This document shows, piece after piece, positions 12,201-55,627 of a stretch of 64,000 bases of DNA. Each line of letters opens with the position of its first letter. The stretch's first letter is position 1. Origin of the DNA: Rosa chinensis (taxonomy: Eukaryota; Streptophyta; Magnoliopsida; Rosales; Rosaceae); NCBI RefSeq assembly GCF_002994745.2, contig NC_037088.1, positions 59,290,397 to 59,354,396 of the forward strand, in the 5' to 3' direction. The notes below the pieces were generated by a model. It saw nothing but the letters and a program-made list of their open reading frames with translations. It was not told the origin of the DNA and made no database searches. Made by a program: the position numbers and the translations under genes.

Positions 12201-12638
12201 AGATATGAGCAGACTTTATTCACAAAGAGGAGCAAAGAAGGAAAAATTAACATTGTAAGTGTTTACGTTGATGATTTAATTTTTACTAGTGATGATGATG
12301 TGATGACTGAATGTAAAAGTTCTATGGTGAGAGAGTTTGACATGTCTGACTTGGGAAGAATGAGGTATTTCCTTGGCATCGAGGTGTTACAAGAGCCTGA
12401 TGGTATCTTTATATGCCAAAGAAAATATGCGTTGGAGGTCTTGAAGAGATTTGGAATGATGGAAAGTAATTCGGTGAGCAGTCCAATAGTTCCAGGTTTC
12501 AAAATGAGCAAAGATGAAGATGGAGTCACTATTGATGAGACGTATTACAAGAAATTGGTGGGAAGTTTAATGTATCTCATAGCCACAAGACTTGACATGA
12601 TATTTGTTACTTGTCTCATAAGTAGATATATGGCAAAG
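9210..12638 (+). pseudogene. Copia gag-pol polyprotein, broken (gag to mid RT)
   Basis: Starting from the ATG at 9210 the frame encodes a copia Gag (UBN2-type) whose motifs include HFDGHYDHWRMLM and the zinc knuckle CYRCHKIGHY near 9943-9975. Then come a protease-like region in which the catalytic D-S/T-G reads D-L-G, a pre-integrase domain, an integrase core (HADICGP about 10698, HTDRGGEF about 10890, NGVAERKN about 10990), and a copia RT with LDVKSAFLH and the catalytic YVDD at 12263-12274. It is dead: in-frame stops lie at 9315, 9360, 9375, 9435, 9495, 9978, 10315, 10987, 11191 and 12006, and a frameshift lies near 10140. Most stops are one transition away from a family-typical Gln, Trp or Arg codon. 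The frame breaks off exactly at the CAAAG target site of the nested element. Confidence 0.93.
12634..12638. repeat. Target-site duplication CAAAG (left copy)
   Basis: CAAAG immediately precedes the TGATAGG start of the nested element and recurs at 21396-21400 right after its GCGCGTCA end. This is a perfect 5-bp duplication made by integrase. Confidence 0.97.
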
Positions 12639-12865
12639 TGATAGGAGCATTTTAATGCGACGTTTTAACTGCATTTCCCTACATTTCTTACGTTATTTCC
12701 TTATTAAAATCCTGTTTAGGAAAGTTTCCATTCTTTGATTGGGAAAGTTCCTATTTGTAGAAAGTTTATATTTTTGTAGTTTCTATTTATCATTTTTAGT
12801 AAGTTGCCATTTTTCATTTTAGGAAAGTTTCTATTTTTCTTATTAGTTTCTATTTTTAGGACCTC

Positions 12866-13100
12866 CAAGCAAGTGGAAAATCTTGAGGAGGAAAATCAAA
12901 GTTGCAACCAAGTGGAAAATCTTGAGGAGGAAAATCAAAGTTGCAACCAAGTGGAAATTCTTGAGGAGGAAAATCAAAGTTGCAACTAAGTGGAAAATCT
13001 TGAGGAGGAAAATCAAAGTTGCAACCAAGTGGAAAATCTTGAGGAGGAAAATCAAAGTTGCAAGCAAGTGGAAAATCTTGAGGAGGAAAATCAATTCAAG
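12866..13100. repeat. 39-bp minisatellite in the LTR, six units
   Basis: Unit AAGTGGAAAATCTTGAGGAG... is 39 bp long and repeats about six times, the last unit being divergent. Because 39 is a multiple of three, all frames that are open in one unit stay open, giving spurious ORFs on both strands (for instance a 13-residue repeat QVENLEEENQSCN). The same array is at 19842-20076 in the 3' LTR. The related solo LTR at 53913-55627 has only four units. Confidence 0.93.
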
Positions 13101-13203
13101 TTGAACAAGTGATAAACAAGTGGGAAGATATTTTTTACAAATTTGTCTAACATATCTAGCCCTTCATTTATGTTCATCTCCACCCTCCATTCATCATTTT
13201 TTG

Positions 13204-13215
13204 GGCTATAAATAC
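13204..13215 (+). promoter_or_regulatory. LTR TATA box
   Basis: GCTATAAATACA followed by a CT-rich stretch is a canonical plant TATA context inside the LTR and is the likely RNA start region of the element. It is also present at 20180-20191 in the 3' LTR, where it could drive transcription into flanking copia sequence. Confidence 0.7.
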
Positions 13216-14423
13216 ACTTCTCCTCTCACTCTCAAAAGACACATTCCTTCATCCATTCCATCTTCTTTGTCTCTCCATTTCCTTTCCATTTTCTCTCCAT
13301 CCTCTAGTGCATTCAACATTTCAAGCAAGGCCAAGGGAGAAGAAGAATTGCCGTGAGCATCATCCTCCATCACCATCCTTGAAGCTTGCTTTCGAGATTC
13401 AAGAGACCACATCCTCAATTCGTTCATCTCATCTTCATCCACGGTGTAATCCGATTCTCCTTTGTAACCTTTGCTTTGATTTTGTTGGTTTTGTTCTAGT
13501 TGACATATGTGTTTGAATGAATATTAATTTCTGGAATTTTATGATTAATTGAGAATTTTCAGATTCATATAATTGTGATTCTAAGTTGCTTATGTGAGTT
13601 TGTTCGATTAAATTTGCTTTACAGAAAACTTTTATATGTTTATCTTATTTGGGTCGACACTTATAGGATTTGCATGTAATTGGTGCTAGGTTTAAGAACA
13701 TGAAATCGACTTTTCGTTTTGTGTAACTTGAATCAAAAGTAGTAAAGGTTCTGGACAAGAATCGAATTTAATTGAAGATGATTGCAATTAGGTGGACTTT
13801 TCCATAACTAAGTTGTACACTTGAGTTGATAGCCTTTCTCTATGTCTAATGCATTAAACATGTCATGATTGACTAGCTTTCTAGGGCTTGATTGCATGTT
13901 TGATAGGATTAATCTAGGTGCTTTCGCTTAGGTTAATTAGCATTGAAAAGTAAAATATGGGAAATCATTTGCTTTCGAATGTTTCACATGATCAACTCCT
14001 CTCTCATGACTTAGATGAACAATATTAGGGTTTGAATCAATTTTAATCATATGTTTCGGTTTTTGATCTTTGTTCTCTCACTCTATTTTATTTTTATGTT
14101 TTTGCATTTTAATTATTTTGTTAACTTAGTTTTATTTTCGAAAATCCAAAAACAAAATCCCCCTTATTTTTGTTCACTTGTATATATTTATATTCTTTAT
14201 TTTATTTTTGTAAATAATACTTTATTATTTTAATTCTTTATTTGTTTATACAATTGTATATATTTATATTCTTTATTTTATTTTTGTAAATAATACTTTT
14301 CTTTATTTGTTTCACAATTACAAGTGTACCCTCAATCCCCGGAATAGAACGATCCCTATTTGCTTATACTACTAACGATATTTCAGGGTTAAATTGCGCG
14401 CTCGCTCAAAGCGCGTCAATTTT

Positions 14424-14441
14424 TGGCGCCGTTGCCGGGGA
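14424..14441 (+). other. Primer binding site (tRNA-Asp type)
   Basis: TGGCGCCGTTGCCGGGGA starts five bases after the 5' LTR. It is the conserved primer site of Athila/Tat-type Ty3/gypsy elements and assigns this coding-less element to that lineage. Confidence 0.85.
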
Positions 14442-15213
14442 TTGAAAAATCACTAGCTAAATTGTGTCATATATTGTATATATTTGTTGTATATAAATTG
14501 TTTAAAACTTAGTTTAAATATTATTTATATTATTAAACACGAATTTTAATTGTAGGTTGTAAATTGAGAGGAATAGGTGAAGTCTCTTTTATTAATATTG
14601 GCCTAAACCCCTTATTGGTACCTAGCTCAGGTCCCTTAAGGTTGAGGGCGGCCTTTATTAACACTTGTTGAACTGTCTTCACACTTATGAACTTTTTCAT
14701 CTTAGTAAGTATAGCCTATGTGGAATGGTGTCTAGGAAGGGGACAACGTTCATGACGGGTTTTTGAATCCAGAAGTGCTTGCAAATGGGCCTAAACCACT
14801 ATGTGGGAGTAGCTCATGCCAAAATGGATTTTTCCTCTCGTGTTCGTCCTCCCCCACCTGGCCATTTCAGTAAGGTTGCCCAAACGATTTGAAAGGGAGT
14901 TTGTGTCTAGGCGACTATACTTGGGCCGCACGTCCACTTGATTTACCGCTTGGAATTTGATTCGATATCAATAATGTTTATAATAAAAGAAATACTTGTG
15001 AATACTCTATACGTGTAAATTATTTTGTTGTTTCACACTTTAATACTTGTAAAAATACTTTTCACGTTTTATACTCACTTGTACTTAACTTGTGTCTTTT
15101 GTACAATATACTTGTTAATTTTACTTGTAGTTTGTAATTAATAGTTATACTTGTTTTTATTTTGTATTTCTTTGTTAATTATAGTTACTAACTTTATTTA
15201 ATGTAGGTACCGT
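14442..15213 (+). other. Leader of the non-autonomous element, non-coding
   Basis: No protein domain is visible and there are frequent stops in all frames. Where autonomous relatives would have gag-pol there is only AT-rich sequence, so the coding region has been lost. Confidence 0.7.
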
Positions 15214-15430
15214 CTGGCTGCAAGACGTAAAATACAAGCGCTACTTGGGAGGCAACCCATGCTAATCAGATTTGCTTTCTTTATCCTTATATTTTATTTT
15301 TCGTTTTTGCTTATTTGTTTTAGTTGTTATTTTCGTAAATTTCATCCCTATATGCTTACTTATTTCATTGCATGCTTTTAATTGATTACATTGAAGATAA
15401 TGCAATATTTAAGTGTGGGGGAAGAGATTT
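15214..15430 (+). repeat. Hairpin plus GTGGGGG module, copy A
   Basis: AGCGCTACTTGGGAGGCAAC (hairpin TGGG-AGGCAA-CCCA) is followed by CAGATTTGCTTTCTT, then by TTGAAGATAATGCA and AAGTGTGGGGGAAGAG. The same ordered set of motifs recurs at 17427-17690. The two copies are clearly homologous but diverged. Such modules are known in Athila/Tat-related elements downstream of coding regions. Confidence 0.8.
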
Positions 15431-15618
15431 ATATTTTTGTCTTTCATTTTGAGTCCAATATATATTTATATTTGTCTTTTATTTTTTGAGTCCTTTATAT
15501 ATATATAAAAAAAAAAAACTGCATTCATTCAGTCTTATTAAATTCAGCTATTTACAAAAAAAAAAAAAAATAATAAAAAAAAAATTAAAAATAATAATAA
15601 TAATAAAAATACTCTATA

Positions 15619-16293
15619 CTAAACCATGTCTGCATCTCCGTAGGAGTTGAGGCTGAGCTCAAGGGAAATGCGAGAGTCACCGCCATAGCCACTACCTCCC
15701 TTGGAAGTAGTCTTCATGTTGCTAAAGATGTCCTCACCATGCATGGGGAATAGTGGAAGGGTTTCAATCTCCTGGTGATCTCCTCCTCGTTGTTCCATGA
15801 AAGATTGTCCTCCTGTTGTGCCAAAGGAGGTAGTACTGGTATTAGTGTTGAAGGGTGAGGAGGAATATGGGTCAACACCATAGCCGACACGTGACCCAAA
15901 GTTTAGATCAATGGATCTACCATCATCAGTAGAACTAGTGGATCCAAAATTGAGATCGAGAGATCCACCAACCGGAACGTTCTGAAATTCCTTCAACTTC
16001 TGCCTCTCACGAGCCTTGAGGTTCTGGAACCAAAAGAAGACGTTTTTGTCCTCGATCTGCCCATACTGTTTCAGATGAAGGCAGATCTCTTGAATCTGCT
16101 CTGGAGTTGGGTACTTAAAACCCTTATCATAGTAAAGGCCCTTGAGGATTCTTAGTTGAGGCGGTGTGGGAGCCCACCGGTTACTACTCCCGGCTGCTTG
16201 GATGCTTCCTCCCTCCTCGGTTGGTTGCTGGGCTTGTAATTCCATTTGTTGCTGGGTTTGTAACTCCATTAGATGCAGAGTTCGTGGTTCCAT
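15619..16293 (-). CDS. WUSCHEL-like homeobox protein captured by a retrotransposon
   Basis: An intact 224-residue ORF, antisense to the element. WUS-type homeodomain at residues 37-102 (RWAPT...KNVFFWFQNLKARERQK). WUS box TLPLFPMHGED at 178-188. EAR-type repression motif LELSL at 211-215, plus two extra EAR-like motifs LDLNF (112-116) and IDLNF (128-132). The WUS box followed by HGED and the LYY after helix 1 match WUS itself better than WOX1-6. The family represses or activates target genes in the nucleus and maintains stem cells. The homeodomain is uninterrupted, although WUS genes usually have introns, which points to an mRNA-derived copy. His in the otherwise near-invariant [11 protein letters not shown] is Leu here (residue 92). 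I chose the ATG at 16293 because it lies about 80 bases after the expected start site of the TATA box at 16403. The frame is open up to 16563, but that extension runs through the TATA box. Whether it is expressed is unknown. Confidence 0.9.
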   Translation of the reverse strand: MEPRTLHLMELQTQQQMELQAQQPTEEGGSIQAAGSSNRWAPTPPQLRILKGLYYDKGFKYPTPEQIQEICLHLKQYGQIEDKNVFFWFQNLKARERQKLKEFQNVPVGGSLDLNFGSTSSTDDGRSIDLNFGSRVGYGVDPYSSSPFNTNTSTTSFGTTGGQSFMEQRGGDHQEIETLPLFPMHGEDIFSNMKTTSKGGSGYGGDSRISLELSLNSYGDADMV

Positions 16294-16402
16294 GTTGATG
16301 AAGAAAGGATTTGAGTTTCGAAAGAAAGGCTGAAGGGTTGAGAGAGAAAGACTGGAACTCGGAAGAATTTTCTTTTGGAGTGAACAGTCGCTCAGAATGC
16401 AC

Positions 16403-16412
16403 CTATTTATAG
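16403..16412 (-). promoter_or_regulatory. TATA box of the captured WUSCHEL-like gene
   Basis: The minus strand reads CTATAAATAG, a canonical plant TATA box, about 110 bases upstream of the ATG. This suggests the cargo includes a core promoter and not only coding sequence. Confidence 0.65.
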
Positions 16413-16509
16413 AACGAGTGAGCAGATCTCCACCGTTGGATCGACGATCTCTGAGATTAAATCTACGCGTTGGATTAAAGTCACCTGAAAACACGGAAAA
16501 GCTGTTGGC

Positions 16510-16725
16510 TCGTGAAGGACACGTGGGGGAACCAAACTTATCTCGAGGAGCTGTGACAGACAAGCTACAGCAGAAAGCAGGTTTAATTGCCGTGAATCAA
16601 GGAAAAGAAAGGACGCGTGGGGGAATCAAACGAATCTCGAGGATCCGTGACAGACAAGCTATAGCCGAAAGCATGCCATAAATCCAGGAAAAGAAAGGAA
16701 TATTTACACGTGGGGGAGTTTCTTG
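16510..16725. repeat. ~94-bp imperfect tandem repeats with ACGTGGGGG boxes
   Basis: Two and a quarter copies of a block containing ACACGTGGGGGA, TCTCGAGGA, GTGACAGACAAGCTA and GGAAAAGAAAGGA. The ACGTG or GCGTG box plus GGGG occurs at 16519-16529, 16612-16623 and 16707-16717. ACGTG is the core of G-box/ABRE sites. The array lies just upstream of the antisense WUSCHEL-like promoter and between it and the sense ORF, so it could act on either. Confidence 0.75.
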
Positions 16726-16895
16726 GGCCGTGAACTGTCATAACTCTTCTCCTTCCTGGAGAAGCTTTGTTAAAACCCTGTGCTTGTTGAGATTTCTACC
16801 CTATTTTGTGCTTCATATATACATCCTTTTTTGTCTCCTCCAGATTTTACTAAGGTTTGTCTAAACGTGCAGTTTCAAATTCCTTCTACTTCCTT

Positions 16896-17426
16896 ATGGC
16901 TCGAACCAAGGTTACCCCTCGCAGGGGCGTCAATCAACGCCGTGTTCTCTCTTTGGAAGAAGAAGGTCGTCAAGCGGCCACTAGAGCTGGGCTTACTCGT
17001 CCATGGGACCATCGTCCTATCCGTGAGCGTACCCGCAGTCCCCCTCCTCTGCCTCGTCGCTCTCCCAGACTGCATCCCAGAGAGTTTTCTTCCTCACCAA
17101 CTGCTCGTGCTCCTCGGCCTATGGCCACCCTGGAAAGCTTGTCGGATTCGATTGATGATTTGCGTTCCTCTCTCCGCGATGGTATTATGGTGACAGATTG
17201 GAGAGTCAATTGCATGATCGATTACATCTCTGAGATGAACTGCTCTTTGATCCGCTGTCACACTGCAATAAACAAGCTTGCTCAGGAAGTCAATAACTTG
17301 CAGAGTTATCCTCCTGGGTTTCCTCGCAAGGACGCTACTGCATCACACCATGAGAACCCTCCTCCGGAGGCTGAAACCAGCAAGAGGGCTGCCACTCGCC
17401 AGCATACCGCTCCTCCAAAGGAGTAA
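16896..17426 (+). CDS. Sense ORF of the non-autonomous element (MARTK protein)
   Basis: A 176-residue ORF starting MARTKVTPRRG. The N-terminal ~90 residues are Arg/Pro/Ser-rich and strongly basic. The middle (about 92-150: LSDSIDDLRSSL, INKLAQEVNNL) has heptad-like spacing suggestive of a coiled coil, and the tail is Pro/Glu-rich. It ends about 30 bases before the second hairpin module, where Athila/Tat elements carry an extra ORF, so I infer an element-encoded accessory or nucleic-acid-binding protein. The start at 16896 is chosen because the upstream extension (16857) has poor context. I do not recognise a named domain. The first five residues resemble the histone H3 N-terminus, which may be chance. 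Confidence 0.55.
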   Translation: MARTKVTPRRGVNQRRVLSLEEEGRQAATRAGLTRPWDHRPIRERTRSPPPLPRRSPRLHPREFSSSPTARAPRPMATLESLSDSIDDLRSSLRDGIMVTDWRVNCMIDYISEMNCSLIRCHTAINKLAQEVNNLQSYPPGFPRKDATASHHENPPPEAETSKRAATRQHTAPPKE

Positions 17427-17690
17427 ATAGAGGTACAAGTCTAGGCTGAAAGACTTTAAACATTAAGCGCTGCATGGGAGGCAACCCATTTCAACTGTAG
17501 CTGTGGAGGAGCCATCAAACGCAGATTTGCTTTCTTGAACTCTTCCTTCTATTTTATTTTCATGAATTTTAGGTTGTTTTAGGTTTCGTTGTGTTAATTT
17601 TCTCTTCTATGCTTGATTTATGCTTTGCATGATTTATATTGTTTATACATTGAGGACAATGCATGAATTAAGTATGGGGGAAGGGTTATT
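17427..17690 (+). repeat. Hairpin plus GTGGGGG module, copy B
   Basis: Carries AAGCGCTGCATGGGAGGCAA (hairpin TGGGAGGCAACCCA), CAGATTTGCTTTCTT, TTGAGGACAATGCA and AAGTATGGGGGAAGGG in the same order as copy A at 15214-15430. Copies A and B bracket the WUSCHEL-like ORF and the MARTK ORF. Confidence 0.8.
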
Positions 17691-19614
17691 GCTTTATTGT
17701 GTTTTTAGTAGTTAGTATATAAAAAAAAAAAAAAATAATAGTTGATGTTGGATTGTGTTTTTTGTGTTTTTAATTGATGTGTGATACACTAAGGTATATT
17801 GGATTAAACATAGTCTTGAAAAAGGGTAGCTGTTTCAGTCCCATTGCACATCGAGACTCCCTGTTCCCGTACCTAAGTGTTGAATTTAAATTATTTAAAA
17901 AAAAAAAAATTTGGTTACTTTTGTTTTTGTTTTTGAGTCTTAGAATGCCCTTTCAACTGTCTAAGATGATTCTATATCTCTAAAATCATGATTAAAAGAG
18001 GATCACAAAATTGAGATGATTTTTAAAATGGTATTCTTTGGTTAATTGAGATATATGAAAAATGCATGCATGTGTAGTGGATATGGATTTCGTAACCTTG
18101 GTACAGAATATGAGCATGTTAGGATGAGTTTTGATTCATAAAAGCCCATGTGAGATATTTGAGCCATGTCCCTTTTTCTTGGAGTGATAATTGAAAACTA
18201 TATTCTTAATTTCTTGGCGATGTTTTGATGATCTCATTACTCTTTCATTTGATTGATTGCTTGCCATAGATTAAGTTTGATGGACTAGAGAATGCTAGAA
18301 TTTTCTCTTGTGCTTGTTGAGACGTTTGTCAATACATAGCCCTGATTCTGGAAAGGATAGAGGCACCCTAGGAATTACCACCATTGCCATATAAACTTGT
18401 GTCCCTATTTGTGCCCGTCGTGGGACCCCCATAGATAAGCCCCTTTGAGCTTACATTAAGCCTTTTCTTTCATCACCCTTAAATCCTTAACCCTGAACCT
18501 TAGTATAGCTACACTCCTACCCTTTGTTCTAAAAACTTAGCGGAGCTATATTTTGGGACTTTACTTGAGGATTTGGCATTGAGAAAGAAGATTGAGAAGA
18601 GGTGAAAGTTCAAGTGTGGGGGTAGACTTGTCCATGAAAAAAAAAAAATTATGTGAAAGCCGTGAAAAAGAAATGAAAAAGAAAAAAAAAATGTGTACGG
18701 CTAGAAAATTAAAAGAAAGAAAAGAAAAAAAATGTATATGGATTTTAGTCCTCCATACTTAGTGAGTTTGGAGTTTGTTTTGAATTGAAGGCCCACTATT
18801 GAAAAATTTGGTCTTTGTCCAATTCACTAGTTCGAGGGAAGTTTAGAGTGAAGATTGGGCCTAACATGAAGACATTTGGCCCTTTCATAAAACCTCTATG
18901 GGATGTGACGTTTTGATATATCTTGGTGGATTTCTAGAAGTCTCTACATCTACATGAGCTCTGCTAGGTTTTTAGGACACTTTGTGAAATTCCTTACCTT
19001 TCGTTTCTTAAAACCTTGAGCCTTGGCCCCATTACAACCCTTAATAAGACCTTCTTGATCCTTAAGATGGGACAGCCTTTGATTTGTGGAGATGAGTTAC
19101 AAGAGTTGAACCTATGGCTTAGGTCCATCCGTGCAAGTAATTGATATCCTTCATGAGATCTTTTCAAAAAAATTATATTCACAAAGTGCTTTTCGTTTCT
19201 TATATATGTGAGCTATTTGATTGCCTCAAAATATTTTCTCTCACATATAATTGAGTGATTATAAGCTTTTAAGCATTGTCTTGAATTCTGAGAGAAGAAA
19301 GAGTGGATATACCTTGTGAGGATATGAATCATACTTGTTCGAAGCATGCTTAACAGAAACCATCATCATTGTCACAACCAAGTCCTACTTGTGTATGTGT
19401 GGATTATATGTTTTAATTAACTCTTGAATATCTACATATTGATTCTTGGTTGAGTGCTAATCTTGATGTTGTGAAAGTAGGAGATTTCTGAGACAAAAAG
19501 TTGAAGGGCAATAGAGTCATTGTTTTTGTAGAGTCTTTAATTTTCGTTGAGTGTTAGTGTGTGTCTTAGTGTGATTTTGCTAAGGGACTAGCAAAAGCTA
19601 AGTGTGGGGGAATT
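17691..19614 (+). other. 3' non-coding region of the element and polypurine tract
   Basis: No supported coding sequence. There are poly(A)-rich and GAAAAAGAAA-type stretches at about 18640-18735, an internal AAGTGTGGGGGT at about 18610, and the final polypurine tract TGTGGGGGAATT at 19603-19614 abutting the 3' LTR. Confidence 0.7.
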
Positions 19615-21395
19615 TGATAGGAGCATTTTAATGCGACGTTTTAACTGCATTTCCCTACATTTCTTACGTTATTTCCTTATTAAAATCCTGTTTAGGAAAG
19701 TTTCCATTCTTTGATTGGGAAAGTTCCTATTTGTAGAAAGTTTATATTTTTGTAGTTTCTATTTATCATTTTTAGTAAGTTGCCATTTTTCATTTTAGGA
19801 AAGTTTCTATTTTTCTTATTAGTTTCTATTTTTAGGACCTCCAAGCAAGTGGAAAATCTTGAGGAGGAAAATCAAAGTTGCAACCAAGTGGAAAATCTTG
19901 AGGAGGAAAATCAAAGTTGCAACCAAGTGGAAATTCTTGAGGAGGAAAATCAAAGTTGCAACTAAGTGGAAAATCTTGAGGAGGAAAATCAAAGTTGCAA
20001 CCAAGTGGAAAATCTTGAGGAGGAAAATCAAAGTTGCAAGCAAGTGGAAAATCTTGAGGAGGAAAATCAATTCAAGTTGAACAAGTGATAAACAAGTGGG
20101 AAGATATTTTTTACAAATTTGTCTAACATATCTAGCCCTTCATTTATGTTCATCTCCACCCTCCATTCATCATTTTTTGGGCTATAAATACACTTCTCCT
20201 CTCACTCTCAAAAGACACATTCCTTCATCCATTCCATCTTCTTTGTCTCTCCATTTCCTTTCCATTTTCTCTCCATCCTCTAGTGCATTCAACATTTCAA
20301 GCAAGGCCAAGGGAGAAGAAGAATTGCCGTGAGCATCATCCTCCATCACCATCCTTGAAGCTTGCTTTCGAGATTCAAGAGACCACATCCTCAATTCGTT
20401 CATCTCATCTTCATCCACGGTGTAATCCGATTCTCCTTTGTAACCTTTGCTTTGATTTTGTTGGTTTTGTTCTAGTTGACATATGTGTTTGAATGAATAT
20501 TAATTTCTGGAATTTTATGATTAATTGAGAATTTTCAGATTCATATAATTGTGATTCTAAGTTGCTTATGTGAGTTTGTTCGATTAAATTTGCTTTACAG
20601 AAAACTTTTATATGTTTATCTTATTTGGGTCGACACTTATAGGATTTGCATGTAATTGGTGCTAGGTTTAAGAACATGAAATCGACTTTTCGTTTTGTGT
20701 AACTTGAATCAAAAGTAGTAAAGGTTCTGGACAAGAATCGAATTTAATTGAAGATGATTGCAATTAGGTGGACTTTTCCATAACTAAGTTGTACACTTGA
20801 GTTGATAGCCTTTCTCTATGTCTAATGCATTAAACATGTCATGATTGACTAGCTTTCTAGGGCTTGATTGCATGTTTGATAGGATTAATCTAGGTGCTTT
20901 CGCTTAGGTTAATTAGCATTGAAAAGTAAAATATGGGAAATCATTTGCTTTCGAATGTTTCACATGATCAACTCCTCTCTCATGACTTAGATGAACAATA
21001 TTAGGGTTTGAATCAATTTTAATCATATGTTTCGGTTTTTGATCTTTGTTCTCTCACTCTATTTTATTTTTATGTTTTTGCATTTTAATTATTTTGTTAA
21101 CTTAGTTTTATTTTCGAAAATCCAAAAACAAAATCCCCCCTTATTTTTGTTCACTTGTATATATTTATATTCTTTATTTTATTTTTGTAAATAATACTTT
21201 ATTATTTTAATTCTTTATTTGTTTATACAATTGTATATATTTATATTCTTTATTTTATTTTTGTAAATAATACTTTTCTTTATTTGTTTCACAATTACAA
21301 GTGTACCCTCAATCCCCGGAATAGAACGATCCCTATTTGCTTATACTACTAACGATATTTCAGGGTTAAATTGCGCGCTCGCTCAAAGCGCGTCA
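19615..21395 (+). repeat. 3' LTR of the WUSCHEL-carrying element
   Basis: 1781 bp, matching 12639-14418 base for base by eye, apart from one extra C in a C-run near 21137. Followed directly by the second CAAAG target copy. Confidence 0.96.
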
Positions 21396-21400
21396 CAAAG

Positions 21401-27522: not shown

Positions 27523-28983
27523 ATGCCTTCTTCTTCGCCAATCTCTCTCACTGTGGTGTCTGAATCCATGGTGTTTCCTGACCAGACCTCCACCCTCGGA
27601 GACCTCAAGCTTTCGGTTTCTGACCTCCCCATGCTCTCATGTCACTACATCCAAAAGGGTGGCCTCTTCACCAAGCCTTCTTTCCCAATCCAATCCCTGG
27701 TCTCGCTACTCAAGACCGGCCTCTCCCAGACCCTCACTCGCTTCCCGCCCTTGGCCGGCCGGTTGACTACGGACAAAGATGGTTACTTGTACATCACCTG
27801 CAACGACGCCGGTGCTGATTTTATTCACGCAGCGGCCACTGAGGTCTCCGTGCGTGACATTCTGTCGCCGACTCACGTGCCGGAGTCGGTGAAGGAGTTT
27901 TTTGCATTGGACAGGACTGTGAGCTACACCGGCCATCACAACCCAATCCTGGCAGTCCAGGTCACCGAGCTCCAAGACGGAGTTTTCATCGGTTGCGCCG
28001 TCAACCACGCCGTCACTGACGGCACCTCCTTCTGGAACTTCTTCAACACCTTCGCCGAGGTCTGCCGCGGCGGCAAGAGCTTCTCCAGAAAGCCGGACTT
28101 CACCCGGGACTCGATTCTGATTTCTCAGGCGGTCCTTCAGTTGCCGGAAGGTGGCCCCAAGGTCACATTCAACGTCAACGAGCCGTTGACAGAGAGAATC
28201 TTCAGCTTCAGCAGAGAAGCCATTCTGAAACTAAAAGCCACAACTAACAACAACAACAACAAATGGACCCAAAACGACGACGTAGCCACCGCCGTCGAGA
28301 TTCTCGGGAAGCAGAGCAACGACCCTTACGAAACTAACAACGACAACGCAAGAGTAACCGCCATCATCGAAAACTGGTTCAAGAATTTCAAGCCGCAAAT
28401 CACTGAGAACAAAACGGCAGCGGAGATCTCGTCGTTTCAGTCGCTCTGCGCGCTTCTGTGGAAGGCTGTGACACGCGCCAGGAAGCTACCGGAGTCGAAA
28501 ACGACGACGTTCAGAATGGCAGTGAACTGCCGTCACAGGCTGGAGCCGAAGCTGGACCCGTACTACTTCGGGAACGCAATCCAAAGCATCCCGACGTACG
28601 CGTCCTCGGGAGACGTGTTGTCTAGGGATCTGAGATGGTGCGCAGAGCAGCTCAACGACAACGTGAAGGCGCACGATAGTGATAAGGTGAGGGAGTGCAT
28701 AGAGGATTGGGAGAAGAACCCGCGGGTGTTTCCTCTAGGGAACTTCGACGGTGCATCAATGACGATGGGTAGCTCGCCGAGGTTTCCGATGTACGACAAC
28801 GATTTCGGGTGGGGCAGGCCGTTGGCGGTTCGGAGCGGGCAGGCGAATAAATTCGACGGTAAGATTTCGGCGTTTCCGGGGAGGGACGGAGCTGGGACCG
28901 TTGATCTGGAGGTGGTTTTGGCGCCTGACACGATGGCGGGGTTGGAGTCTGATTTGGAGTTCATGCAATACGTGTCAAACTAA
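27523..28983 (+). CDS. BAHD-family acyltransferase
   Basis: A single-exon, full-length 486-residue protein. The catalytic HxxxD motif is HAVTD at residues 162-166, and the structural DFGWG motif is at 427-431; both are required in the family. BAHD enzymes transfer acyl groups from acyl-CoA to alcohols or amines in the cytosol, in secondary metabolism or surface lipid formation. The overall pattern (CHYIQKGGLF near the N-terminus, intronless, FPPLAGRL) resembles the EPS1/DCR-like and At3g50280-like subgroup, but the substrate cannot be read from sequence. The ATG is preceded by a TATA box and a short leader. The coding region is clearly GC-richer than its flanks. An asparagine run at about 242-246 lies in a variable loop. 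There is no sign of damage. Confidence 0.95.
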   Translation: MPSSSPISLTVVSESMVFPDQTSTLGDLKLSVSDLPMLSCHYIQKGGLFTKPSFPIQSLVSLLKTGLSQTLTRFPPLAGRLTTDKDGYLYITCNDAGADFIHAAATEVSVRDILSPTHVPESVKEFFALDRTVSYTGHHNPILAVQVTELQDGVFIGCAVNHAVTDGTSFWNFFNTFAEVCRGGKSFSRKPDFTRDSILISQAVLQLPEGGPKVTFNVNEPLTERIFSFSREAILKLKATTNNNNNKWTQNDDVATAVEILGKQSNDPYETNNDNARVTAIIENWFKNFKPQITENKTAAEISSFQSLCALLWKAVTRARKLPESKTTTFRMAVNCRHRLEPKLDPYYFGNAIQSIPTYASSGDVLSRDLRWCAEQLNDNVKAHDSDKVRECIEDWEKNPRVFPLGNFDGASMTMGSSPRFPMYDNDFGWGRPLAVRSGQANKFDGKISAFPGRDGAGTVDLEVVLAPDTMAGLESDLEFMQYVSN

Positions 28984-30103: not shown

Positions 30104-30676
30104 ATGAGCAGAAGCCGGGTTTTGAGGAATCCAATCGCGTTCGTATTGGGGGTGGTATTGGTTTGCAGCCTTGTAATACTAGCACTCACAATGCTACGTC
30201 TTCCAGATCCAACCACAACAGCCACCACTCATCATTCCCACAGTGATAACAAGTTACTGATCGGAAAGTTTGGGGAGATGATGATCGAAATGTTGCCGGA
30301 AGATCTAGCTTTCACGGTCTTTCTCCCATCGGAGAAAGCTTTCAAGCGGGACCTGAGGCTGGACCCGAGTGATAGTTTTGTGGGGGAGAAGATGAATGAT
30401 ACGTATGCAGTGGTTTCTAGAGTGCTGGGGTTCTCCGCCGTGCCGCGGAGTATTGATTCCGAAACGGTGGCGTTTGGGAAGGAGATTTCGTATGATTCGA
30501 TATCGGGGTTTGTGCTGTACATAACGAAGGATGAAGATGGAAGGCTGGTTGTCAATGGGGTTCGATCGGAGAGAGTTGATCTGAGGAGGAAGGGGAGTCT
30601 TGTGCATGTCATGGATGGGGTTCTGATGGATGCCGAGTTCCAGCAATCGGTTCAGTATGATGGTGAAGAAGATTGA
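30104..30676 (+). CDS. FAS1 (fasciclin) domain-containing membrane protein
   Basis: A 190-residue, single-exon protein. Residues 11-31 form one hydrophobic segment (signal anchor). The remainder resembles one FAS1 domain: LTVF-type motif FTVFLPSEKAF at about 65-75, a middle YAVVSRVLGF, and the conserved end VHVMDGVLM near 170-178, equivalent to the H2 motif. FAS1 domains mediate adhesion or protein-protein contacts at cell surface or wall. There is no AGP-type Pro/Ala-rich region or GPI-like tail, so it is a short plant FAS1 protein and not a classical fasciclin-like arabinogalactan protein. The first ATG after the leader is used. Confidence 0.8.
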   Translation: MSRSRVLRNPIAFVLGVVLVCSLVILALTMLRLPDPTTTATTHHSHSDNKLLIGKFGEMMIEMLPEDLAFTVFLPSEKAFKRDLRLDPSDSFVGEKMNDTYAVVSRVLGFSAVPRSIDSETVAFGKEISYDSISGFVLYITKDEDGRLVVNGVRSERVDLRRKGSLVHVMDGVLMDAEFQQSVQYDGEED

Positions 30677-34986: not shown

Positions 34987-35669
34987 TCAAAGGAAGCTTA
35001 AGCGTAGATCCAAAGGTGGATGATGATCCATTTCTGCTCCAACAGTGTAAGTAAAACCTCTAGTATTCTCTTTGCAACAAAACTCATTTGCATAAAATCT
35101 CAGCTTCTCTGCTCCTGATTCATCGAATGAGTTTATTGGGAAGAGTTGAAGCGTCTCAATCACTCTTGCAGGCTCTGAACTAACTTGATTAAGCACTTCT
35201 GAAAAGAAAATGGAACATAAGCACAATATCAGCACACAAAAGAAACATTAAGAGATCTAGAGAGAGCTCCTATATATAGAAACAAACAAAGGTACTTGAA
35301 AACAGAAAATTACATGTTAACTAAGTTACCTTTTGGAGAAGAAATCTTGTCATGATCTCGACGTATGAACTCCTTGTCGATATCAATGGAAACTTTGCGG
35401 CGCTTCTGCCTCTCCCTGGCTTTGTGATTCTGGAACCAGTAGAATACATTCTTGCTCTCGATCTTTCCATAAAAGCTTAACTGAGTAGAGATTTTCTGAA
35501 TCTGATCAGTGCTGGGGGTTCGGAGTCCAGACCTGAACAGGTCCGTCAAAACTTTGACCTGCTCAGTAGTAGGATTCCAACGCCCACACTTGTTATTACC
35601 ACCATTACCGCCACCGCCACCGCCACCGCGAATACTTTTAATACAAAACCCTGACATATTTTCATCCAT
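34987..35669 (-). CDS. WOX5: WUSCHEL-related homeobox 5 (WOX5-type) transcription factor
   Basis: Two exons (35669-35330 and 35198-34987, GT-AG intron of 131 bp) encode 183 residues, the usual WOX5 length. A glycine run (15-21) precedes the homeodomain (about 29-93: [35 protein letters not shown]). After the intron come the WUS box TLQLFP (129-134) and the C-terminal EAR-like end [10 protein letters not shown]. This combination, with [12 protein letters not shown], is diagnostic of WOX5/7. WOX5 acts in the root quiescent centre to keep neighbouring stem cells undifferentiated. An in-frame ATG four codons upstream (35681) is possible; I prefer 35669 because orthologues start at the equivalent MxExMSGF. 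A TATA box lies about 105 bases upstream. Confidence 0.96.
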
Positions 35670-53912: not shown

Positions 53913-55627
53913 TGATGCGCTCGAAGCAAGCGCACAATTTAACCCTAAAAATATCGTTAGTAGTATAAGCAAATAGGGATCGTTCTATCCGGGGATTGAG
54001 GGTACACTTGTAATTGTAAAACAAATAAAGAAAAGTATTATTTACAAAAATAAAATAAAGAATATAAATATATACAATTGTATAAACAAATAAAGAATTA
54101 AAATAATAAAGTATTATTTACAAAAATAAAATAAAGAATAAATATATACAAGTAAACACAAATAAGGGAGGGATTAGGATTCTTAAAATTAAAATTAAAA
54201 TAAATAAAATAAAGAAAACGTAAAAACATATATACAAGGGTGGAACGCAAGGAACAAAGATCAAAACCAATTCCATATAATCAAATTCGATTCAAACCCT
54301 ATAATTGTTCTTCCAAGTCATGCGAGAGGAGTTGATCATGTGAAACATTCGAAAGCAAATGATTTCCCATATTTTACTTTTCAATGCTAATTAATCTAAG
54401 CGAAAGCACCTAGATTAATCCTATCAAACATGCAATCAAACCCTAGAAAGCTAGTCAATCATGTCATGTTTAACGCATTACACATAGAGAAAGGCTATCA
54501 ACTCAAGTGTACAACTTAGTATGAATAAGTTCACCTAATTGCAATCCTCTTCAATTGAATTCGATTTTTGTCCAAAACCTTTACTACTTTGATTCAAGTT
54601 TACACAAAACGAAAAGTCGATTTCATGTTCTTAAACCTAGCACCAATTACATGCAAATCCTATAAGTGTTGACCCAAATAAGATAAACATATAAAAGTTT
54701 TCTATCAAGCAAATTCAATCGAACAAACTCACATAAGTAACTTAGAATCACAATTATGGAATTCGAAAACTTTATTTAAACATAGAAGTTGGGTTTAAAC
54801 TTTACCCTAAACATTATTGTTAACTAGAAACAAGTTCATACGAAATCAAACAAGGAAATCAAAAATGTTACAAGGAAAATGAACGAATTACACCGTGAGT
54901 GGAGATGGAGATGGAGAGCTAGATGGTTGGATCTTGAATCTTGGAAGCAAGCCTTCAAGGTGGATGATGGAGGATATGATCTTCACGGCTCCTTCTTCTT
55001 CTTCCTCTCCTTGCTTGAAAATGCAGAACTTTGCAACTAGAGAATGGAAAAGGAAAATGGAAAGGAAATGGAGAGACAAAGAAGATGAGATGGATGAAGG
55101 AATTGTATTTTGAGAGTGAGAGGAGAAGTGTATTTATAGCCCAAAAAATGATGAATGGAGGGTGGAGATGAACATAAATGAAGGGCTAGATATGGTAGAC
55201 AAATTTGTAAAAAATATCTTCCCACTTGTTTATCACTTGTTCAACTTGAATTGATTTTCCTCCTCAAGATTTTCCACTTGGTTGCAACTTTGATTTTCCT
55301 CCTCAAGATTTTCCACTTGGTTGGAACTTTGATTCTCCTCCTCAAGATTTTCCACTTGGTTGCAACTTTGATTTTCCTCCTCAAGATTTTCCACTTGCTT
55401 GGAGGTCCTAAAAATAGAAACTAATAAGAAAAATAGAAACTTTCCTAAAATGAAAAATGGCAACTTACTAAAAATGATAAATAGAAACTACAAAAATATA
55501 AACTTTCTACAAATAGGAACTTTCCCAATCAAAGAATGGAAACTTTCCTAAACAGGATTTTAATAAGGAAATAACGTAAGAAATGTAGGAAATGCAGTTA
55601 AAACGTCGCATTAAAATGCTCCTATCA
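53913..55627 (-). mobile_element. Solo LTR of the WUSCHEL-carrying retrotransposon family
   Basis: 1715 bp, minus orientation, with ends TGATGCGC...CTCCTATCA, alignable along its whole length with the 1780-bp LTRs at 12639 and 19615. A perfect 5-bp target duplication GTCGC flanks it (53908-53912 and 55628-55632). It has four minisatellite units instead of six and many substitutions relative to the nested element, so it is an older and distinct insertion. No interior remains. Confidence 0.95.

What the first reader, a model, noticed from the sequence alone, without database searches (positions are those of the whole stretch)
12639..21395. A WUSCHEL-like stem-cell homeobox gene carried as cargo by a young LTR retrotransposon
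Seen: an 8.76-kb element with paired 1.78-kb LTRs, tRNA-Asp primer site and perfect target duplication has no gag-pol but contains an intact antisense ORF with WUS homeodomain, WUS box and EAR motif. Known: some plant retroelements transduce host genes, but a complete WUS-clade regulator travelling inside an LTR element would be striking, because ectopic WUS activity alters meristems and regeneration. Inference: every new insertion could spread a WUS-like gene together with LTR enhancers.
Basis: partly seen in the sequence, partly recalled or inferred. Interest (0 to 1): 0.93.

Follow-up and report, generated by a model that had tools for sequence, protein, structure and literature searches.

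The report
Rose retrotransposon carrying a WUSCHEL gene
A young jumping element in the rose genome carries, backwards inside it, an intact copy of the plant stem-cell control gene WUSCHEL, and hundreds of sister copies do the same, which would explain the puzzling explosion of 'WOX genes' reported in roses and suggests that the element is using a host stem-cell regulator for itself.

Summary
An 8,757-bp LTR element (12639-21395) with substitution-free LTRs, a perfect CAAAG duplication and no recognisable gag-pol carries an antisense, intronless 224-aa WUSCHEL ORF with homeodomain, WUS box and EAR motif. The host is almost certainly Rosa chinensis. Of 40 genome copies found by the 5' interior, 36 carry the ORF and 33 of those keep it intact; in a cargo-blind check 5 of 10 (window included) do. 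A codon pattern for its recognition helix occurs 450 times (reversed control 0), the native type 7 times. The native three-exon WUS and an old element copy nearer to it were found. Across 33 intact copies the homeodomain is under purifying selection (omega about 0.2; 27 identical), while the adjoining linker drifts (about 0.86). A 2024 paper reports 381 RcWOX genes, 364 rose-only, and suspects genome duplication; its motifs are those of this family, and 'transpos' and 'retro' do not occur in its text. Best reading: a captured host regulator kept as an element-level accessory gene, like the unexplained antisense ORFs of Grande/Retand. Expression, DNA targets and benefit are untested; that paper found 359 of the 364 nearly silent during rooting.

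The parts
12634..12638 (.). 5-bp target-site duplication, left copy (CAAAG)
12639..14418 (+). 5' LTR, 1,780 bp, TG..CA; contains an array of 39-bp repeats
14424..14441 (+). primer binding site TGGCGCCGTTGCCGGGGA (tRNA-Asp by recall)
15205..15424 (+). left copy of a 71-81% duplicated motif that flanks the cargo
15444..17901 (.). cargo block (WUS gene, shared upstream region, plus-strand ORF), absent from the sister elements L040-L043 / L048
15619..16293 (-). WUS-derived ORF, 224 aa plus stop, intronless, antisense to the element
15991..16188 (-). homeodomain; residues R38, Q89, N90, R94 of AtWUS kept, Y86F and H91L differ
15739..15762 (-). WUS box TLPLFPMH
15646..15663 (-). EAR-like motif LELSLN
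16403..16411 (-). TATAAATAG, 118 nt upstream of the WUS start; at 117-122 nt in 29 of 37 WUS-bearing sequences examined (the old copy L051 lacks it)
16515..16673 (.). 65-bp direct repeat, two copies; CACGTG in the shared upstream region 16294-16895: 2 seen, 0.05 expected
16896..17426 (+). 176-aa ORF of unknown kind, head-to-head with WUS; relatives with an organism name only in Rosa
17431..17683 (+). right copy of the duplicated motif that flanks the cargo
19602..19614 (+). purine-rich tract GTGTGGGGGAATT before the 3' LTR
19615..21395 (+). 3' LTR, 1,781 bp, no substitution against the 5' LTR
21396..21400 (.). target-site duplication, right copy (CAAAG)

Best explanation
This is a recent insertion of a large, non-autonomous rose LTR-retrotransposon family whose accessory gene is a captured host WUSCHEL. 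SHOWN: the ORF derives from Rosoideae WUS; it lacks both native introns; the cargo sits antisense, with a TATA box upstream, head-to-head with a second conserved ORF; the genome holds hundreds of matches to its recognition helix; the homeodomain is under purifying selection among the copies sampled. INFERRED: the source was spliced WUS mRNA (both introns, the promoter and the 3'UTR are missing, but so is exon sequence next to each intron, so later deletion is not excluded). The selection acts on source elements, because young insertions differ from each other mainly by what their sources had accumulated. The product is a nuclear DNA-binding protein that keeps WUS-type base contacts and the two co-repressor motifs. 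It most likely acts in trans or on its own divergent promoter and favours expression or transmission of the element in meristem cells, the lineage that forms the gametes. The enzymes for movement must come from another element, not identified here.
For: 36 of 40 copies found by the 5' interior carry the ORF, 33 of 36 intact. 450 pattern matches of the element-type helix, reversed control 0, against 7 of the native type, one of which is itself an element copy. Cargo-blind: of the 10 three-prime-interior hits that lie in the range for which places were printed, 5 (the window one of them) have the helix 1.87-1.91 kb upstream. Native three-exon WUS on C2. L051 on C4: an intronless, decayed WUS inside the same element family, like native WUS from 34 nt before ATG to about 7 codons before the stop. 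Homeodomain in 33 intact copies: 12 synonymous to 7 nonsynonymous variants, omega 0.16-0.21, p 9e-5 to 1e-3; variants in 2 or more copies 4:0; linker 30:68, omega 0.77-0.92; HD against linker Fisher p 0.009. Native against element homeodomain: dN 0.147, dS 1.0; changes placed on the element branch 10 synonymous, 9 nonsynonymous, p 0.003-0.013. The rose proteins sampled form one clade (98/99) beside Fragaria and Argentina WUS.
Against: 359 of 364 rose-only members nearly silent during rooting (PMC11405225). No enrichment of WUS-type TGAATGAA or TAAT sites in LTR or interior; the single LTR site is shared by only 2 of 21 copies. The 40 copies were the best hits to the window's 5' interior, so they favour close kin; cargo-less elements exist (4 of 40; about half in the cargo-blind check), so the gene is not needed for movement. 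N-terminus (0.54-0.77) and C-terminal part (0.47-0.56) are only weakly constrained. Recombination may distort omega. C-terminal dS (0.17) is far below homeodomain dS (1.0), so the ORF is a mosaic. Antisense orientation is not what simple template switching from an mRNA gives. No transcript, protein or binding data here.
Confidence: 0.6

Rival explanations
1. Passive passenger. The WUS cargo was captured and rides along; copies look intact because they are young, and it does nothing for the element.
For: Nine of 21 copies have mismatch-free LTR stretches, so few disabling mutations are expected in any ORF. The linker drifts at a neutral rate. Near-silence in rooting RNA-seq. Four of 40 copies, and 5 of 10 in the cargo-blind check, lack the cargo or its helix.
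Against: Homeodomain omega 0.16-0.21, shared variants 4 synonymous to 0 nonsynonymous, beside a neutral linker in the same ORF and the same copies. TATA box at 117-122 nt in 29 of 37, though much of the region is conserved as well.
Confidence: 0.26
2. Ordinary gene-family expansion: the rose WOX genes multiplied by whole-genome or segmental duplication, as the 2024 paper hypothesises.
For: Published hypothesis (PMC11405225, section 4.1); 381 annotated genes spread over all seven chromosomes.
Against: The same paper found 0 collinear genes within rose. The 36 WUS-bearing copies were all found by the element's 5' interior, and each of the 20 fetched as about 10 kb also matches the LTR. 35 pattern hits on C1, taken as chromosome 1, against their 36 genes there. 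Canonical WUS was found at one place, C2 11.7 Mb.
Confidence: 0.02
3. Selection for RNA rather than protein: the antisense gene is kept because its transcript or small RNAs target host WUS or the element's own RNA.
For: The ORF lies antisense to the element, and part of its C-terminal region is still close to native WUS (81 bp at 93% identity).
Against: In the homeodomain synonymous sites change while amino acids hardly do, which is protein-level constraint; there the DNA is only 78% identical to native WUS.
Confidence: 0.06
4. Host-level co-option: one or a few copies now serve the rose, and their selection is what is seen.
For: Five rose-only members are expressed in the published RNA-seq.
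Against: The pattern is spread over 33 copies at separate sites, 27 with the identical homeodomain; host use of a few loci cannot constrain the rest.
Confidence: 0.06

Closest known systems
Antisense additional ORFs (aORF-3R) of plant LTR elements: maize Grande gene23, rice RIRE2, Silene Retand, PvRetro13 (review PMC7264820: passages and the first of three parts of the text read; PMC11963269: passages)
   Same: Antisense ORF kept in most copies of a family; upstream promoter of its own (reported for Grande; only a TATA box seen here); product expected in the nucleus (reported for Grande).
   Different: The review says that no clear similarity to other proteins is described for these ORFs and argues that they are not transduced genes; here the source gene is plain (WUS). 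No pol is present here, so position relative to pol and lineage cannot be stated.
Gene-transducing LTR elements such as maize Bs1 (named in PMC7264820; details recalled)
   Same: Host gene sequence without introns inside an LTR element.
   Different: By the review, transduced pieces are usually in element sense and in one or a few copies; here antisense, with about 450 genome matches and domain-specific purifying selection.
WUSCHEL (WUS-clade WOX transcription factors)
   Same: Homeodomain with WUS base contacts, WUS box, EAR motif; groups with Fragaria and Argentina WUS.
   Different: Intronless, middle region lost, SIDLNFG repeats gained, homeodomain 44 of 61 residues as in native rose WUS, moved by an LTR element.
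The 364 rose-only 'RcWOX' genes of clades I-V (PMC11405225; abstract, sections 2.4-3.1, 3.3 and 4, part of 3.2 and further passages read)
   Same: Clade IV motif YGQIEDKNVFFWFQNLKA is in the window ORF; clade V motif SHISLELSLNSYRDADMA is in sister copies such as L015; chromosome 2 is richest; limited to Rosa.
   Different: The paper treats them as a gene family; 'transpos' and 'retro' occur 0 times in its text. Here they are explained as retrotransposon cargo; the 364 were not mapped one by one.

Membership tests
LTR retrotransposon | paired LTRs with TG..CA ends, target duplication, PBS, purine tract | tested here: met
LTR retrotransposon | own gag and pol (autonomy) | tested here: not met
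   no gag or pol family in the 12 of 17 interior ORFs scanned: non-autonomous
WUS-clade WOX protein | WOX homeodomain | tested here: met
WUS-clade WOX protein | WUS box and EAR motif | tested here: met
   TLPLFP and SLELSL present; TL.LFP and SLELSL invariant in the 25 rows of A2
WUS-clade WOX protein | descent from WUS rather than another WOX | tested here: met
   clade with Rosoideae WUS, 97/97 and 98/99 (the only other WOX in that tree was the window's WOX5 exon); DNA homology with native rose WUS
WUS-clade WOX protein | stem-cell function | not testable with these tools
   needs expression and complementation
antisense-aORF LTR element (Grande/Retand kind) | antisense ORF present in most copies | tested here: inconclusive
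   36 of 40 by the 5' interior but 5 of 10 in the cargo-blind check
antisense-aORF LTR element (Grande/Retand kind) | lies between pol and 3' LTR; Retand-lineage reverse transcriptase | not testable with these tools
   no pol in the element; autonomous partner not found
antisense-aORF LTR element (Grande/Retand kind) | own upstream promoter | tested here: inconclusive
   TATAAATAG 117-122 nt upstream in 29 of 37; no transcript data
transduced host gene (Bs1 kind) | derives from a host gene | tested here: met
   native rose WUS identified; DNA homology in two blocks
transduced host gene (Bs1 kind) | came through spliced RNA | tested here: inconclusive
   native introns of 86 and 335 bp absent from L051 and the window ORF, but adjoining exon sequence is missing too
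transduced host gene (Bs1 kind) | same sense as the element, one or few copies | tested here: not met
   antisense; 450 pattern matches

The most novel reading that the evidence does not exclude
A selfish retroelement has armed itself with the plant stem-cell master regulator. The element-encoded WUS is kept by selection because it gives the element access to, or expression in, the shoot stem-cell lineage from which pollen and eggs arise, much as animal retroviruses carry captured growth-control genes. Roses would then host about 450 copies of a parasite-owned stem-cell factor.
Probability: 0.25. Interest if true: 0.96.

Novelty: new variant of a known kind. Interest (0 to 1): 0.86.

Why it matters
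It explains why rose genomes are annotated with hundreds of WOX genes (381 in R. chinensis; 9-14 in pear and other Rosaceae and 6-40 in Prunus by the same paper), which its authors left open. It gives an antisense ORF of a plant LTR element a known host source, whereas the review read here calls the origin and role of such ORFs unknown. It offers a testable case of a developmental regulator kept under selection by a selfish element. It also warns that rose WOX family studies and RNA-seq mapping may mix genes with transposon copies.

Tried and rejected
Self-regulation through WUS sites in the LTR: TGAATGAA 1 in the LTR (0.35 expected), shared by 2 of 21 copies; TAAT not enriched; not supported. 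CACGTG is enriched in the shared upstream region (2 seen, 0.05 expected; 1 of 200 shuffles reached it), but G-boxes serve many factors. Assembly chimera: rejected (clean TSD, many copies). Genome duplication: rejected for the copies sampled. ORF intactness as proof of function: rejected, since the copies are young; only the syn/nonsyn contrast counts. One search translated one base out of frame and was dropped. Rows dropped before counts: 3 of 36 WUS-bearing copies without the full ORF (L016, L020, L037) were left out of omega; the plus-ORF omega (0.56; shared variants 0.55) used the 29 copies with the same start and length. Searches for earlier print; no paper describing WUS in a rose retroelement was seen in those listings. 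Raymond et al. 2018 (the other rose genome paper, named from memory) is not held, so prior mention there cannot be excluded. Hibrand Saint-Oyant 2018 (passages): WUS, WOX and homeobox 0 times; it mentions an abundant Tat-like Gypsy family (3.4% of the genome), whose relation to this family was not tested. The R. rugosa genome paper (one passage) lists an orthogroup 'WUS/WUSCHEL' with the numbers 46, 14 and 32.
Full report
THE OBSERVATION. The element is as described. The two LTRs (12639-14418, 19615-21395) differ by one 1-bp indel and no substitution over 1,780 bp, the flanks are CAAAG on both sides, a primer site follows the 5' LTR and a purine-rich tract precedes the 3' LTR. It sits inside a Ty1/copia pol. 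With a recalled plant rate of 1.3e-8 per site and year a single substitution in the pair would mean about 20,000 years, so the insertion is very young. The antisense ORF 15619-16293 codes 224 aa with a WOX homeodomain (Pfam E 1e-10; WUSCHEL structure E 1.4e-21), WUS box and EAR motif. AlphaFold gives the homeodomain pLDDT about 90 or more and the rest low confidence (mean 58.6); Foldseek puts WUS-HD first, TM 0.90-0.95 by target. The residues that the WUS-HD structure paper names as base-reading (R38, Q89, N90, R94; PMC7203112, passages) are kept; Y86 is F and H91 is L. No gag or pol family was found in the 12 of 17 interior ORFs scanned.

THE HOST AND THE FAMILY. The window is G000:C1:59290397-59354396 of a 515-Mb genome. 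The best relatives of the ORF are clusters named 'putative transcription factor Homobox-WOX family [Rosa chinensis]', with 91 and 80 members among others, so the host is R. chinensis with near certainty. The 5' interior (14419-15500) gave 40 scored matches at 93-100% out of 3,704 candidates. I have the cargo region of all 40: the window, 20 as about 10 kb, 19 as 2 kb. Of these, 36 carry the WUS ORF and 33 of the 36 are intact (not L016, L020, L037). LTR pairs were seen in 19 of the 21 longer copies: 17 are 99.4-100% identical over the stretch held, L012 is 95.4% and L020 96.6% (one long gap); 9 of 21, the window included, show no mismatch. So the family was moving recently. Against the window, the 20 copies are 97-99% alike in the 5' interior (by which they were chosen), 96-99% in the plus ORF and 90-99% in pieces of the WUS ORF, while LTR pieces are mostly 80-87% (L019 98%, L022 92%) and most 3' interiors 68-80% (L022, L023 93%): a mosaic family.

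COPY NUMBER. A codon pattern for the element-type recognition helix (FFWFQN-L-KA) matches 450 places (222 + 228), the reversed control none. The canonical pattern (FYWFQN-H-KA) matches 7: the native WOX gene of this window, native WUS, four other WOX genes and one old element copy. As a cargo-blind check, 10 of the 40 best 3'-interior hits lie in the part of the genome for which one search printed places; 5 of these 10 have the helix 1.87-1.91 kb upstream (without the window itself, 4 of 9). So roughly half of the elements with this 3' end carry the cargo with its helix. The 36 of 40 is the upper view, because that query ran 57 bases into the cargo.

CARGO BLOCK AND EMPTY SISTERS. Four of the 40 (L040-L043; a longer stretch in L048) match the interior up to 15443 and again from 17902, with about 60 unmatched bases between, and lack WUS and the plus-strand ORF (L040 is more diverged). 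The block 15444-17901 is therefore a discrete module; whether these sisters never had it or lost it is not decided. It is bordered by a duplicated motif (15205-15424 and 17431-17683, 71-81% alike), which suggests recombination between related elements. Inside, WUS (minus) and a 176-aa ORF (plus) stand head to head over about 600 bp, with a TATAAATAG on the WUS side at 117-122 nt in 29 of 37 WUS-bearing sequences examined. The plus ORF has no Pfam family and 7 relatives in 5.8 billion proteins; those with an organism name are Rosa.

ORIGIN. Native rose WUS lies on C2 at 11.71 Mb with exons of 406, 110 and 384 bp and introns of 86 and 335 bp. L051 on C4 is an old copy with in-frame stops that is embedded in the same element family (1,450 bp at 79% to window 15773-14378) and 89% like native WUS over 409 bp of 5'UTR and exon 1. 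Its likeness to native WUS starts 34 nt before ATG and ends about 7 codons before the native stop, and neither intron is there. The alignment also skips 31 bp of exon 1 and 5 bp of exon 2 around intron 1, and 75 bp of exon 2 and 193 bp of exon 3 around intron 2 (from the coordinates). Spliced mRNA followed by small deletions is the simplest account; loss of the introns by deletion alone is not excluded. Neither native promoter nor 3'UTR came along. The antisense orientation is not explained by simple template switching on an mRNA and stays open. In a protein tree all rose proteins used form one clade (98/99) beside Fragaria and Argentina WUS, and an R. chinensis group is sister to an R. rugosa group within it; shared linker repeats (SIDLNFG) suggest capture before these species parted. 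That the R. rugosa proteins are element-borne is inferred from this likeness; no R. rugosa DNA was read.

SELECTION. Among 33 intact copies, counting each distinct variant once, the homeodomain has 12 synonymous and 7 nonsynonymous changes (omega 0.16-0.21 for transition weights 1-3, p 9e-5 to 1e-3). All 7 nonsynonymous changes are singletons; variants in 2 or more copies are 4 to 0. The linker has 30 to 68 (0.77-0.92), the N-terminus 6 to 12 (0.54-0.77), the C-terminal part 13 to 20 (0.47-0.56; p 0.04-0.12). 27 of 33 homeodomains are identical proteins. HD against linker: Fisher p 0.009. Between native WUS and the window ORF the homeodomain has dN 0.147 and dS 1.0, omega 0.15, part of which reflects constraint on the native branch; a C-terminal segment has dS 0.17 and omega 0.66. 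Placing changes with L051 gives the element branch 10 synonymous and 9 nonsynonymous, omega 0.25-0.30, p 0.003-0.013; 13 codons differ in all three and were not placed. The linker acts as an internal control: recent spread or conversion alone would not spare only the homeodomain's amino acids. The plus ORF has omega 0.56 (29 copies, p 0.01). Limits: best-hit sampling, recombination, repeats in the linker that blur its alignment, no tree-based codon model.

HOW IT MOST LIKELY WORKS. Shown: structure, source gene, abundance, domain-specific constraint. Inferred: an element-encoded nuclear factor with WUS-like DNA contacts and two co-repressor motifs, made from its own antisense promoter, that helps source elements. 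The likeliest benefit is expression or persistence in stem cells of the shoot, because that lineage forms the gametes. I found no enrichment of WUS sites in the LTR, so action on its own LTR is not supported; action on the divergent promoter (G-boxes) or on host targets remains possible.

WHAT IS KNOWN. Duan et al. 2024 (PMC11405225) counted 381 RcWOX genes, 364 of them rose-only, 226 on chromosome 2, with 170 in R. multiflora and 105 in R. rugosa, found 0 collinear genes within rose, suspected genome duplication and asked for more evidence; 'transpos' and 'retro' do not occur. Their clade IV motif is in this ORF and their clade V motif in sister copies, and their 36 genes on chromosome 1 fit 35 pattern hits on C1. 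They also report 359 of 364 members nearly silent in rooting cuttings, the strongest point against function. Vicient and Casacuberta 2020 (PMC7264820) review antisense ORFs of Grande, RIRE2 and Retand as kept in most copies, of unknown origin and role, and argue against transduction; the present case looks like those but has a clear host source. Membership of the Retand lineage cannot be tested without pol.

VERDICT. New variant of a known kind, of high interest because it answers one published puzzle and makes another testable.

Noticed in passing
window 34987-35669 (minus): A native WOX5/7-like host gene with an intron, canonical [12 protein letters not shown] helix and a TLQLFP WUS box, 14 kb from the WUS-bearing element.
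   Followed up: partly
window 53913-55627 (minus): A solo LTR of the same family (85% to the window LTR) with a perfect 5-bp duplication GTCGC.
   Followed up: partly
window 15619-16293: Homeodomain dS against native WUS is 1.0 but a C-terminal segment has 0.17: the ORF is a mosaic of segments of different age or has been partly overwritten.
   Followed up: no
window 16896-17426: Conserved 176-aa plus-strand ORF, no known family, head-to-head with WUS, omega about 0.56 in 29 copies; an accessory gene of its own?
   Followed up: partly
L009-L028: LTRs and 3' interior differ widely between copies while the 5' interior and both ORFs stay close; LTRs within a copy are near identical. Looks like rapid LTR turnover or swapping.
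   Followed up: partly
G000:C2:45526101-45537482: Three 3'-interior hits spaced about 4.84 kb apart: perhaps a head-to-tail array of cargo-less elements.
   Followed up: no
G000:C2:61784638 and 61791597: Two 5'-interior hits 6.96 kb apart, close to one interior plus one LTR: perhaps a tandem element sharing an LTR.
   Followed up: no
window 12843-13094 and 19819-20070: Array of 39-bp repeats in each LTR, open on the minus strand (83 aa with IFLLKIFHLVATL repeats).
   Followed up: no
window 27523-28983 and 30104-30676: Host genes: an acyltransferase of Pfam Transferase family PF02458 and a fasciclin-domain protein (PF02469).
   Followed up: no
P0049, P0051, P0052, P0054-P0058 (R. chinensis proteins): A deeper group of rose-only WUS-like proteins with changed helices (such as FVNQRAREK or FQNQRAREK); P0052 stands for 20 members. 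Whether element-borne was not tested.
   Followed up: no
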